24,867 nucleotides of DNA from a virus. A program made the position numbers and the translations under genes. Shown here piece by piece: positions 21,690 to 24,867 of the stretch (the stretch's first letter is position 1; each line of letters begins with the position of its first letter). Location of the stretch: IMG/VR virus record IMGVR_UViG_3300033388_003061, positions 1-24,867 of that record. One strand, given 5' to 3'. The notes beneath the pieces were generated by a model. That model had not been told where the DNA came from, ran no database searches, and saw nothing but the letters and a program-made list of their open reading frames with translations.

Positions 21690-22157
21690 ATGAGTGATAT
21701 CAACGCTTTACCAAGCATCCGGGTTCACAGGAACCTTCACAAGCGGGCTGCGTGGCTCAAAGCCGTCAAGGGCGGTGCGACCCACGAGCAAGCCTCAGCT
21801 TCCATTGGCGGGCAGTGGGTGCGCACTGCAGGTGGACGGGTGGCGGAGTACATGGACAGTGTGGTGCTGACCGGTGTGACGACACGCATCCAACCCGCAG
21901 CTCAACGCAAGTGTCAGGAGTCAGGCACGCGGTCAGTGTGCGCCTACTTCGACGGCACCCGCGTGGACGTTGACCCGCAGGCACCCATCCGCGATTGGCT
22001 GCGTGTCAGCTATGACCCACGGGTCGATGACTGCTTCAGGGCAACAGTGCAGGGTCGCCCCGGCACACCCGTCACCTACCCTTGGAACACCGCCGACGCG
22101 GTAGTGCTCCGGGTGGACGGCTCAACGTGGGTGCTCAACCCAACGTGGGAGGTGTAG
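21690..22157 (+). CDS. Hypothetical phage protein, first gene of the rightward operon
   Basis: 155 residues from ATG 21690 with GAGGA upstream. The N-terminal third (HKRAAWLKAVKGGATHEQAS, ASIGGQWVRTAGGRVAEYMD) could hold a helix-turn-helix-like unit, but I cannot assign it. The C-terminal part is beta-rich (RSVCAYFDGTRVDVDPQAPI; NTADAVVLRVDGSTWVLNPT). It lies three bases upstream of the next ATG and is probably cotranscribed with the PP-loop genes. Confidence 0.6.
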   Translation: MSDINALPSIRVHRNLHKRAAWLKAVKGGATHEQASASIGGQWVRTAGGRVAEYMDSVVLTGVTTRIQPAAQRKCQESGTRSVCAYFDGTRVDVDPQAPIRDWLRVSYDPRVDDCFRATVQGRPGTPVTYPWNTADAVVLRVDGSTWVLNPTWEV

Positions 22158-22159
22158 CC

Positions 22160-22384
22160 ATGAGTGCTATCCAATACGCACGGCAGCGTGTAGCTATCCG
22201 CAAGAACGACTGTGATGAGTTCGAGGTGCCCACGCCGGGTGCCTCATCTCTGACGGCGGGGTTGTACTTCACCGACGACAAACAGGACGCGCTCGACACC
22301 GTCAGCTACTCGTGGGCTCAGTTCCCCGGCGAGGTCATCGACGTCACCATCCGACGCGGCACCTACCTTCAGGAGGATGCGTAA
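22160..22384 (+). CDS. Hypothetical small phage protein
   Basis: 74 residues from ATG 22160, chosen for GGAGG seven bases upstream. Sequence is MSAIQYARQRVAIRKNDCDE, then a beta-type region (LTAGLYFTDDKQDALDTVSY) and VIDVTIRRGTYLQEDA. Not recognised. Its stop overlaps the ATG of the first PP-loop enzyme (TAATG), so their translation is coupled and a functional link is possible. Confidence 0.6.
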   Translation: MSAIQYARQRVAIRKNDCDEFEVPTPGASSLTAGLYFTDDKQDALDTVSYSWAQFPGEVIDVTIRRGTYLQEDA

Positions 22385-23253
22385 TGCCAATGCTCGTAAC
22401 ACCACTAGCCGGGGCGAGCCACGCCCTCGAATTGGCTGCCAAGGGTGCATGGTTCATAGCCTCGCACTCGGGTGGCAAGGACAGCCAAGCTCAGTACATT
22501 GCGCTGCTGCAGCTCGGCATCCCGGAGGAGCAGATTATCGTCTGCCATGCTGACTTGGGTGAGGTGGAACATCACGACTCGAAGGAACACATCATTGGCA
22601 CGGTGCGCCCGCGGCACCGCGACATCCTCATCGCCGACGCCATCCATGCGGACGGCTCCGAGAAGGATTTCTTCAGTGCAGTCAGGGCTCGCCGTGCCAC
22701 GCTCGACAGGACCGACAGGCATGACAAGTCTGCCGCCCCGGACGGGCAGAACCGGTACTGCACCTCGGACCTCAAGACGGCACCCATCTGGAAGGCTGTG
22801 AAGAACCACCTCAAGGCGCGAGGTGTCACGCACGGCATCATCGTCAACTGCGTGGGCATCCGCGCCCTGGAAGGTGGACCCAAGGGACGCCGGGCCAAGA
22901 TGGTTGCGGCTCGCCCCAGGTCACAATTCCAGGTCGCTAAGAAGCCCGACAACAACACCTGGACGTGTTGGGATTGGTGGCCGCTGGCGTACTGGACTGA
23001 AGCTCAAGTGTGGGAACAAATCCACGCCGTGGGCCAGCGTCCCCACACAAACTATGGCTACAACCATGACCTGGGACGTGCCACCCGCAACCAGCGAATC
23101 AGCTGTGAGTTCTGTGTGTTCGGCAGCCCCAACGACCTCCGCCTGGCAGCTGCCCGGCGGCCGGACCTGCTGATCAAACTGATACAGCTCGAAGAAGACA
23201 TCCGCGGCCCGCTGCACATCAGCCGGGTCGCCCTGAAGGAGATAACCGCATGA
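22384..23253 (+). CDS. PP-loop ATP pyrophosphatase, PAPS reductase / DndC-like
   Basis: 289 residues. The PP-loop SGGKDS (29-34) binds ATP for AMP activation of a substrate, as in PAPS reductases, TtcA/ThiI-type thiolases and DndC. Further family-like motifs: CHADLGEVEH (54-63), YCTSDLK (125-131), GIRALEGG (158-165), WWPLAYWTEAQVW (198-210) and CEFCVFGS (241-248). YCTSDLK resembles the substrate-binding segment of PAPS-reductase relatives. The Cys pairs could hold zinc or an iron-sulfur cluster. It is too short to have extra domains. I do not see the C-terminal ECGLH motif of true PAPS reductases, so assimilatory sulfate reduction is not shown. It overlaps its neighbours by one (upstream) and four bases (downstream). 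Confidence 0.75.
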   Translation: MPMLVTPLAGASHALELAAKGAWFIASHSGGKDSQAQYIALLQLGIPEEQIIVCHADLGEVEHHDSKEHIIGTVRPRHRDILIADAIHADGSEKDFFSAVRARRATLDRTDRHDKSAAPDGQNRYCTSDLKTAPIWKAVKNHLKARGVTHGIIVNCVGIRALEGGPKGRRAKMVAARPRSQFQVAKKPDNNTWTCWDWWPLAYWTEAQVWEQIHAVGQRPHTNYGYNHDLGRATRNQRISCEFCVFGSPNDLRLAAARRPDLLIKLIQLEEDIRGPLHISRVALKEITA

Positions 23254-24341
23254 GCTTGTCACACCCCAACCCGGCCGCGCCCCTGATCGTCTCTGACGGC
23301 ATGGGCGTTGACTCGATGGCCATGCTCATCGCCATGCGAGATGCGGGCATCCGCCCGGACCTCATCATGTTCGCTGACACCGGCGCTGAGAAAGACATCA
23401 CCTACGCCTACATCGCTCGGCAGAACGCCTGGCTTGAGGCGCAGGGATTCCCCAGGGTGACAGTTGTCAGCTACACCCCGCTGGACACCACGCCCTACAC
23501 CGACCTGCCGGGCAACTGTGTGTCCAACGAGACGCTACCGTCGCTCGCGTTCGGTATGCACAGCTGCTCAGTCAAGTGGAAGATTGTGCCCCAAGACTAC
23601 TATGTCCAGGGCTGCGGCAAAGGTCCCAACGCCTGCCCCGCCTGGCAGCCTGCTCTGGACGCCTGGGGTGCCGGTATCAAGCCAATCAAGGCTATCGGCT
23701 ACGACGACTCACCCGCTGACCGCAAGCGCGCTGGCAAGGTCCACGGCAAGCTCAGCGACCCCAAGCTCAAGGACTATGAGTTCTGGTATCCACTGCAGCA
23801 GCTCGGCTGGACCCGCAAGGAATGCATCAAGGCGATCCAGGCCGAGGGCCTGCAAGTGCCAGCCAAGTCAGCCTGCTACTTCTGCCCGGCCTCGAAGGTG
23901 TGGGAGCTGTGGTGGCTGGCCGCGAATGAACCGGCCAACCTGATCGACGCGCTCAAGCTTGAGTACGGCGCACTAACAGGCCGACACAGCCGCTGGGACA
24001 CCGTCGAGTTCGGTGCCTGGGAATCGCACCTGGCCACCGGCAAAGACTTCCCCAGCAAGGACCACTGTGGCCTGGGTCGCAAGTTCAGCTGGTGCAAGTG
24101 GGCTTTTGATAACCGTGTCGTTGACCTGGAGACCTGGGAGGTCATCGTTGACCCAGCCCACGCCCAGGCTCAATGCGATGAACTACGCGGCTATGACAAC
24201 GCCGCAGACGTACGCGGGTGCGCAGCCATGGATACCGACGACGGTGTCCAGGTGGTCCAGGTGGGCCAGCTCCCCGATCCACGGCTTGACCCTAACAGGT
24301 CATTCCACGCTACCCCTAAAACATTCAGGAGAATGAGATGA
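23250..24341 (+). CDS. Second PP-loop ATP pyrophosphatase, divergent PAPS-reductase-like
   Basis: 363 residues starting at an ATG that overlaps the previous stop (ATGA), with GGAG eight bases upstream. A divergent PP-loop, SDGMGVDS (15-22), is followed by LIMFADTGAEKDITYAYI (38-55), CSVKWKIVPQ (106-115), IGYDDSPADRKR (149-160), FWYPLQQLGW (178-187) and CYFCPAS (209-215). The order of motifs matches the first PP-loop protein (ATP site, acid-loop, Cys-x-x-K substrate segment, aromatic-PL strand, CxxC) but sequence is very different, so this is a distant relative and not a recent copy. The substrate is unknown. The C-terminal 120 residues have more Cys and Trp (DHCGLGRKFSWCKWAFDNRV) and may be a separate module. 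Confidence 0.75.
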   Translation: MSLSHPNPAAPLIVSDGMGVDSMAMLIAMRDAGIRPDLIMFADTGAEKDITYAYIARQNAWLEAQGFPRVTVVSYTPLDTTPYTDLPGNCVSNETLPSLAFGMHSCSVKWKIVPQDYYVQGCGKGPNACPAWQPALDAWGAGIKPIKAIGYDDSPADRKRAGKVHGKLSDPKLKDYEFWYPLQQLGWTRKECIKAIQAEGLQVPAKSACYFCPASKVWELWWLAANEPANLIDALKLEYGALTGRHSRWDTVEFGAWESHLATGKDFPSKDHCGLGRKFSWCKWAFDNRVVDLETWEVIVDPAHAQAQCDELRGYDNAADVRGCAAMDTDDGVQVVQVGQLPDPRLDPNRSFHATPKTFRRMR

Positions 24342-24867
24342 GTGACTTCACACTACGCCCCGACGCAAAGGGCGCACGCTTCCAATGCAACACCGACGCC
24401 GCCCGTGACTATGTTGCCACGCGCTTCTACATGATGGCTGACCCCATCGTGGACGACGCTGGTGTCCGCGCCTGGATAGCCATGATCAACAAGTGTGGCA
24501 TGACCGTGCAGCCTGGGACCGACTATGTCATCCGGGAGCACCAACCATCCTGGGCTGAGGATCATGACCCGGTGCCTGACGCCGCCGAGATGCACTACTA
24601 CGTCGAATACAAAGACCAGGGCCTGCGCCAGGCGGTCACCGTGACGGCGAGGTCAGTCGGCGAGGCCCTGGACATCTGGGGTGACAACTACCCCGGCGAC
24701 GAGGTGATCAGCTGCGAGCCTGCTGTGCGCCTCAAGGCCTGCGAGGATTGGGCTCCTACCCTGGTGCCGTCCCCGATCTACGACACCGATACTGGCCGGT
24801 GCATTGGCCAGCTGCAGCCGATCAACCCCGAGGCCATCGCGGCCAGCCCTGGGATACAGGACTGGTC
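24338..24867 (+). CDS. Hypothetical protein, C-terminus cut by window edge
   Basis: Starts at ATG 24338, overlapping the previous stop (ATGA), with AGGAGAA upstream. About 176 residues are visible and the frame is open at the right edge. It begins MSDFTLRPDAKGARFQCNTD and contains TRFYMMADPIVDDAGVRAWI, VIREHQPSWAEDHDPVPDAA and VTVTARSVGEALDIWGDNYP. It is acidic and Trp/Tyr-rich, with no motif I can assign. Position after two PP-loop enzymes makes it a candidate partner protein. Confidence 0.6.
   Translation, partial: MSDFTLRPDAKGARFQCNTDAARDYVATRFYMMADPIVDDAGVRAWIAMINKCGMTVQPGTDYVIREHQPSWAEDHDPVPDAAEMHYYVEYKDQGLRQAVTVTARSVGEALDIWGDNYPGDEVISCEPAVRLKACEDWAPTLVPSPIYDTDTGRCIGQLQPINPEAIAASPGIQDW

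What the first reader, a model, noticed from the sequence alone, without database searches (positions are those of the whole stretch)
22384..24341. Two consecutive, divergent PP-loop enzymes in a phage operon with unknown partners
Seen: two genes, one after the other with a 4-base overlap, both with PP-loop and paired-Cys motifs in the same order, yet with very different sequence (SGGKDS versus SDGMGVDS; CEFC versus CYFC). Known: PP-loop proteins of the PAPS-reductase/DndC/TtcA group activate substrates with ATP, often for sulfur insertion into nucleic acids or for sulfate reduction. Inference: the two may act in one pathway or as a heteromeric enzyme, with the coupled 74-residue gene and the edge-cut gene as partners. 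No cysteine desulfurase or Dnd partner is in view, so a phage-specific nucleic-acid or nucleotide modification is possible.
Basis: partly seen in the sequence, partly recalled or inferred. Interest (0 to 1): 0.7.

Follow-up and report, generated by a model that had tools for sequence, protein, structure and literature searches.

The report
Paired sulfur-transfer-like enzymes of mobile DNA
A virus carries two back-to-back genes for distantly related ATP-splitting enzymes that look like DNA-sulfur-adding enzymes rather than ordinary sulfur-metabolism ones; the pair recurs in other viruses, and relatives often sit beside DNA-modifying enzymes and carry short tags that normally dock proteins onto the DNA-copying clamp, so they probably modify the element's own DNA.

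Summary
In detail: gene A (22384-23253, 289 aa) and gene B (23250-24341, 363 aa) overlap by ATGA inside a tightly coupled operon. They are remote homologues of each other (hhalign probability 97.8) with confident PP-loop models. Neither is a plain PAPS reductase: they fail or miss the Pfam cut-off, lack the catalytic ECxLH tail, and keep three of the four APS-reductase cluster cysteines. A's family is closest to BrxP/SspD/DndC; B's 'long-B' subfamily matches only SspD among PADLOC models. The pair is conserved: 13 of 23 viral long-B genes have an A gene in the same locus (6 of 47 other B genes), four lineages overlap start-to-stop, and A and B distances correlate. Long-B also sits on plasmids (including TOL plasmid pWW0), repeatedly beside cytosine methyltransferases or DpdA. 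New here: 19 of 70 long-B proteins carry sliding-clamp-binding-like peptides, N-terminal in one clade, C-terminal in another. Best reading: a DNA-directed, ATP-dependent sulfur-transfer module using host sulfur, with variable partners. Chemistry and DNA target are inferred. This window's own pair lacks the clamp tag and has no methyltransferase or DpdA in view. New variant of a known kind.

The parts
21690..22157 (+). 155-aa small phage protein (phrog_586, unknown), first gene of the coupled run
   Evidence: homologue upstream of the B-A pair in L030
22160..22384 (+). 74-aa protein P0003 (phrog_7884, unknown); stop overlaps the start of gene A by one base
   Evidence: homologue upstream of B in L004 7540-7762
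22384..23253 (+). gene A: PP-loop enzyme, PAPS-reductase/DndC/SspD/BrxP-like; SGGKDSQA loop, C126 (RYCTSDLKTAPI) and C241-x-x-C244
23250..24341 (+). gene B: 'long-B' PP-loop enzyme, SspD-like; SDGMGVDS loop, C106 (HSCSVKWKIVP), C209-x-x-C212, C-terminal NAxDxR motif
23250..23253 (+). ATGA start/stop overlap coupling A to B
24338..24865 (+). edge-cut gene P0004 (187 aa in the near-identical contig L002), no recognised family; overlaps B's stop by ATGA

Best explanation
A and B form a mobile-element module of two divergent PP-loop ATP-pyrophosphatases that most likely act in one pathway, together or in succession, to put sulfur into the element's own DNA. In the proposed chemistry each enzyme adenylates its target with ATP at the PP-loop and replaces the AMP with a sulfide held on a [4Fe-4S] cluster bound by three cysteines, as TtuA/NcsA do on tRNA and DndC/SspD are thought to do on DNA; sulfur comes from the host's cysteine desulfurase. 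In relatives, terminal sliding-clamp peptides would bring the enzymes to newly replicated DNA, and the module works beside exchangeable base-modifying enzymes (cytosine methyltransferases, DpdA). Probable benefit: protection from host restriction. Shown here: the homology, the fold, the three-cysteine motif, conservation of the pair, the neighbourhoods and the clamp-like peptides. Inferred: the cluster, sulfur transfer, the DNA target, the partnership of A with B, and the protective role.
For: Profile affinity: all 60 A-family members match BrxP (best 5e-22), 59 SspD and 59 DndC, 52 NCBIfam DndC but only 3 cysH; all 21 long-B members match SspD (best 3.8e-15) and no other PADLOC model. Fold: A pLDDT 93.8, B 85.6; best matches are APS/PAPS reductases, TtuA, NcsA, LarE and YcfA at Z about 10-14. 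Three invariant cysteines in each; no ECxLH in 94 A or 198 B ORFs. Pair conserved in viruses (13/23 long-B versus 6/47 other B), paired A genes clustered on the A tree (7 changes versus 15 shuffled, 0 of 500), Mantel r 0.65, p 1e-4, start/stop overlaps in four lineages. DNA context: DpdA directly after long-B in L192, L224 and L240 and after B-A in L195, near A in L023 and L131; cytosine methyltransferases beside long-B. Clamp-like peptides on 17/73 long-B versus 8/684 other genes, half of those being the module's own methyltransferase, at opposite termini in two clades.
Against: The window's own A and B have no clamp-like peptide. DpdA and DndB were not found in the window, nor DpdA, DndB, C5 methylase or phrog_757 in its near-identical contig; both contigs are incomplete. 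A and B often occur apart. DpdA is absent from 96 of 98 viral records searched, although one of those two searches rang nowhere, controls included. No DndB except in one distant phage; DndD/DndE and SspB/C were not searched. PP-loop folds also serve tRNA, nucleotide and amide chemistry, so fold gives no substrate. The clamp-peptide statistics are not corrected for relatedness, and no structure of a complex was made.
Confidence: 0.45

Rival explanations
1. They are cysH-type auxiliary metabolic genes that boost host sulfate reduction, as such genes are usually annotated in viromes.
For: Homologues are annotated 'phosphoadenosine phosphosulfate reductase' in phage records and cysH is routinely reported as a viral auxiliary gene.
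Against: Below the Pfam PAPS_reduct cut-off (A) or no hit (B); only 3 of 60 A-family and none of 21 long-B members match cysH; no ECxLH catalytic tail in any ORF tested.
Confidence: 0.07
2. They thiolate tRNA (or another RNA), for example to protect viral translation from tRNA-cutting defences.
For: TtuA, NcsA and TilS are among the structural neighbours, and three-cysteine [4Fe-4S] chemistry is typical of tRNA thiolases (own knowledge).
Against: Profile affinity is to DNA-phosphorothioation enzymes; TtcA is matched by only 2 of 60 A members; neighbours are DNA methyltransferases and DpdA; clamp-like peptides point to the replication fork.
Confidence: 0.12
3. The PP-loop enzymes modify a nucleobase or nucleotide without sulfur (amidation, nitrile or 7-deazaguanine chemistry), feeding DpdA or a methyltransferase partner.
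For: DpdA directly downstream of long-B in several backgrounds; GMP synthetase, Cap9 and nitrile synthetase ArtA also appear among B's structural matches.
Against: The invariant three-cysteine motif suggests a cluster; DpdA is absent from the window's lineage and most viral relatives.
Confidence: 0.15
4. The proteins are counter-defence or superinfection-exclusion factors that interfere with host phosphorothioation or BREX-4 machinery by mimicking its PP-loop subunit, without modifying DNA themselves.
For: Resemblance to SspD/BrxP/DndC without the rest of those systems; location among small variable genes.
Against: Active-site motifs (PP-loop, cysteines) are invariant, which a decoy would not need.
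Confidence: 0.12
5. The two genes are unrelated in function and stand together only because both belong to a variable accessory region.
For: A alone and B alone are both common; in L030, a structural-gene relative of this virus, A is next to a different, short B; the neighbouring genes vary.
Against: 13/23 versus 6/47 co-occurrence, repeated direct overlaps and correlated distances; A is a rare gene, about 364 confirmed stretches among 2.9 million viral contigs in a pattern scan.
Confidence: 0.09

Closest known systems
SspD / BrxP / DndC (PP-loop sulfurtransferase of DNA phosphorothioation)
   Same: PP-loop domain, three-cysteine motif of the kind described for DndC (PMC10853773), best profile relatives of both A and long-B
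   Different: Far below the curated DndC cut-off (21 versus 290 bits); no cysteine desulfurase found, DndB in only one distant phage; two different paralogues side by side
PAPS/APS reductase (CysH)
   Same: Fold (Z 11-14) and the C-x4-K-x2-P ... CxxC pattern
   Different: One cysteine instead of the CC dyad, no ECxLH tail, below the Pfam cut-off
TtuA / NcsA / LarE sulfur transferases
   Same: PP-loop plus three-cysteine arrangement and fold
   Different: About 10-20% identity in structural alignments; no RNA-modifying genes noticed nearby
phrog_424 phage 'PAPS reductase' family
   Same: Both proteins match it
   Different: It lumps A-type and B-type; the long-B subfamily with its C-terminal extension, its pairing with A and its clamp-like peptides are not distinguished there

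Membership tests
PAPS/APS reductase (CysH) | Passes the Pfam PAPS_reduct gathering score | tested here: not met
   A 12.2 bits against 22.5; B no match
PAPS/APS reductase (CysH) | C-terminal catalytic ECGLH-type motif | tested here: not met
   0 of 94 A-family ORFs and 0 of 198 B-family ORFs with EC.[LIVM]H
PAPS/APS reductase (CysH) | CC-x~80-CxxC cluster motif (APS type) | tested here: not met
   single invariant Cys (A C126-T127, B C106-S107) plus CxxC
PAPS/APS reductase (CysH) | PP-loop alpha-hydrolase fold of the family | tested here: met
   Z 14.2 (rmsd 3.9, 200 aligned) to 2goy for A; Z 13.0 (rmsd 3.6, 170 aligned) to 7rge for B
DndC / SspD / BrxP DNA phosphorothioation sulfurtransferase | Sequence-profile relationship closer than to other PP-loop families | tested here: met
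   A: 60/60 BrxP, 59/60 SspD and DndC versus 3/60 cysH; long-B: 21/21 SspD
DndC / SspD / BrxP DNA phosphorothioation sulfurtransferase | Curated equivalog score for DndC | tested here: not met
   A 21.2 bits against cut-off 290.4; B no match
DndC / SspD / BrxP DNA phosphorothioation sulfurtransferase | Encoded with cysteine desulfurase and DndB | tested here: not met
   Aminotran_5 in 0 of 42 records, DndB in 1 of 41; contigs incomplete. DndD/E and SspB/C not tested
DndC / SspD / BrxP DNA phosphorothioation sulfurtransferase | Phosphorothioate in DNA | not testable with these tools
   needs mass spectrometry
Three-cysteine [4Fe-4S] sulfur transferases (TtuA/NcsA/TtcA/LarE) | PP-loop plus one Cys and a CxxC, no fourth cluster ligand | tested here: met
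   invariant residues; cluster itself not shown
Three-cysteine [4Fe-4S] sulfur transferases (TtuA/NcsA/TtcA/LarE) | Family-level sequence match | tested here: not met
   TtcA model matches only 2/60 A members and 0/21 long-B; TtuA only weakly in PDB profile search (E 0.011)
Sliding-clamp-associated proteins | Terminal QL[S/D]LF-type motif (consensus in PMC12309361) | tested here: inconclusive
   19/70 long-B relatives but not the window's own proteins; binding not testable here

The most novel reading that the evidence does not exclude
A previously unrecognised, clamp-tethered, two-enzyme DNA modification module shared by viruses and plasmids (its long-B half including a copy on the TOL plasmid pWW0), which installs a new sulfur-containing mark, on a base or on the backbone, at the replication fork, and which plugs into exchangeable partners such as cytosine methyltransferases or the 7-deazaguanine transglycosylase DpdA.
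Probability: 0.25. Interest if true: 0.88.

Novelty: new variant of a known kind. Interest (0 to 1): 0.62.

Why it matters
Viral 'PAPS reductase' or cysH genes are routinely read as sulfur-metabolism helpers; here one conserved pair looks instead like DNA-sulfur chemistry, which would change how many virome studies interpret them. The long-B family also lies on well-studied conjugative plasmids (pWW0, clinical Pseudomonas plasmids) with no assigned function. If clamp tethering and sulfur transfer are confirmed, it would be a way for mobile DNA to mark itself during replication, possibly to evade restriction.

Tried and rejected
Pfam, NCBIfam and PADLOC on the single window proteins gave only sub-cut-off or weak hits; phmmer against the PDB gave nothing usable. 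A cysteine desulfurase partner was sought and not found. A general cytosine-methyltransferase link was tested: phrog_757 proved confined mainly to one viral lineage, so it is presented as recurrent, not universal. A general DpdA link was tested and rejected for viral relatives. A conserved C-terminal cysteine on long-B (RTC), which looked like the CysH tail, is not kept in bacterial members. PptA (PDB 21fy), a weak A hit, could not be identified in the library. A clustering at 60% identity to correct the clamp statistics merged nearly all long-B proteins and was uninformative; the tree replaced it. DndC or SspD structures are not listed among the structural matches; their absence there proves nothing.

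Full report
Observation. The window is a 24,867-base viral contig. Gene A (22384-23253) and gene B (23250-24341) are as described, overlapping by ATGA, in a run of same-strand genes whose starts and stops nearly touch or overlap (155 aa, 74 aa, A, B, and an edge gene that is 187 aa in a near-identical contig). A second contig holds the same pair with five nucleotide differences and one amino-acid difference.

What they are. Singly, A falls below the Pfam PAPS_reduct cut-off and B matches nothing in Pfam, though both match phrog_424. BLASTP sees no significant similarity between them, but profiles built from 60 and 56 relatives align with probability 97.8 and E 9.5e-13. AlphaFold models are good (mean pLDDT 93.8 and 85.6) and match APS/PAPS reductases, TtuA, NcsA, GMP synthetase, LarE and YcfA at Z about 10-14. 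In each family three cysteines are invariant: one in a C-x4-K-x2-P motif and two in CxxC. APS reductases have a CC pair at the first place and an ECGLH tail (own knowledge); neither is present. DndC is described as a PP-loop enzyme with a 4Fe-4S centre held by three cysteines (PMC10853773). Scanning whole families, A matches BrxP 60/60, SspD 59/60 and DndC 59/60, with cysH in only 3/60; long-B matches SspD 21/21 and no other PADLOC model. So they resemble DNA-phosphorothioation sulfurtransferases more than CysH, but they are not members by the curated DndC score, and no cysteine desulfurase was found in 42 related records, so sulfur would have to come from the host.

The pair. Profile scans of viral contigs and a search of the fetched loci show A and B together in about twenty contigs. 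On a tree of 70 B proteins the window's B lies in a 23-row clade (100/99) here called long-B; 13 of these have A in the same locus against 6 of 47 others, and several of the rest are cut by contig ends. Paired A genes cluster on the A tree (7 changes, shuffled mean 15, 0 of 500). A and B distances correlate over 12 pairs (r 0.65, p 1e-4), which shows co-inheritance but not interaction. Direct A-to-B overlaps occur in the window, L134, L121 and L122. A alone is common, B alone too, and L005 holds a broken A before B.

Context outside viruses. Long-B relatives are numerous in bacterial genomes and plasmids, including the TOL plasmid pWW0, where a small gene separates long-B from a DNA cytosine methyltransferase, as on a P. 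aeruginosa plasmid. Unbiased clustering of neighbours followed by Pfam shows DpdA, the enzyme that puts 7-deazaguanines into DNA, directly after long-B in L192, L224 and L240 (L240 by cluster membership), and after B and then an A-type gene in L195. DpdA is also near A-type genes in Streptomyces phage Gilgamesh and in L131. DpdA occurs in 13 of 47 long-B genomes against 0 of 14 controls, though most of those copies are not adjacent. It is absent from the window's viral relatives. Cytosine-methyltransferase-like genes stand between or beside A and B in one viral lineage.

Clamp-like peptides. The bacterial sliding-clamp motif is QL[S/D]LF, more loosely QxxLF (PMC12309361). Such peptides lie at a terminus of 17 of 73 long-B proteins against 8 of 684 other genes of the same loci, four of those eight being the module's own methyltransferase, all five copies of which match the looser pattern. 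In the tree, N-terminal motifs (9 rows) and C-terminal motifs (10 rows) fall in separate clades, so docking peptides seem to have arisen or been kept at opposite ends. Some paired A proteins also end in one (QADLF in L114, QLELAL in L134). pWW0's copy ends QLELW. The window's own proteins lack it. The Fisher test (p about 5e-13) ignores relatedness.

Reading. Inference from these facts: an ATP-dependent sulfur-transfer module acting on DNA at or behind the fork, with A and B as successive or joint enzymes. The cluster, the sulfur, the substrate and the A-B complex are not shown. The rivals (RNA thiolation, non-sulfur base chemistry, decoy counter-defence, sulfate metabolism, coincidence) are ranked in the report sections. 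The literature in the library calls such phage proteins PAPS reductase homologues that deserve further investigation (PMC11437467), and SspD- and DndC-like hits in Sinorhizobium prophages were noted as needing verification (PMC12429752). No paper found in the library links them to the clamp or to DpdA, or describes the pair; the library holds open-access papers only and ten searches were possible.

Noticed in passing
L005:7376-7937 (contig 037153_615): A broken A gene (N-terminal start, foreign middle, intact C-terminal CxxC part) just upstream of an intact B; either a decaying gene or an assembly chimera.
   Followed up: partly
L005:4775, 6758, 7959, 8908: A repeated element CCAAGGGCAWWTGCCCGGGAG sits just before several gene starts, possibly a shared regulatory or ribosome-binding cassette.
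   Followed up: no
L163:1888-2970 and L167:1444-2574: A B-family gene is interrupted in frame by the same TGA codon in two contigs (PQE*YLKQ), though other genes there end in TGA; pseudogene or readthrough unknown.
   Followed up: partly
L278:7902-8993 (pWW0, HXE35_RS00095): The TOL plasmid encodes a long-B homologue annotated 'hypothetical protein', ending in the clamp-like QLELW, one small gene upstream of a DNA cytosine methyltransferase.
   Followed up: yes
L020 (Pseudoalteromonas phage KB12-38): B-type and A-type genes flank an NAD-dependent DNA ligase, with a C5 methylase and DndB nearby: a richer version of the neighbourhood.
   Followed up: partly
L083:5938-10765: Three A-type PP-loop genes lie close together on one strand in one viral contig.
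   Followed up: no
long-B family, C-terminus (window B residues about 317-322): A conserved NAxDxR motif in a disordered C-terminal tail of most long-B proteins, of unknown role.
   Followed up: partly
A family, PADLOC model PDLC03333: 14 of 60 A-family members match a model labelled Type II methyltransferase, hinting at fused or mislabelled PP-loop-methyltransferase proteins in that model.
   Followed up: no
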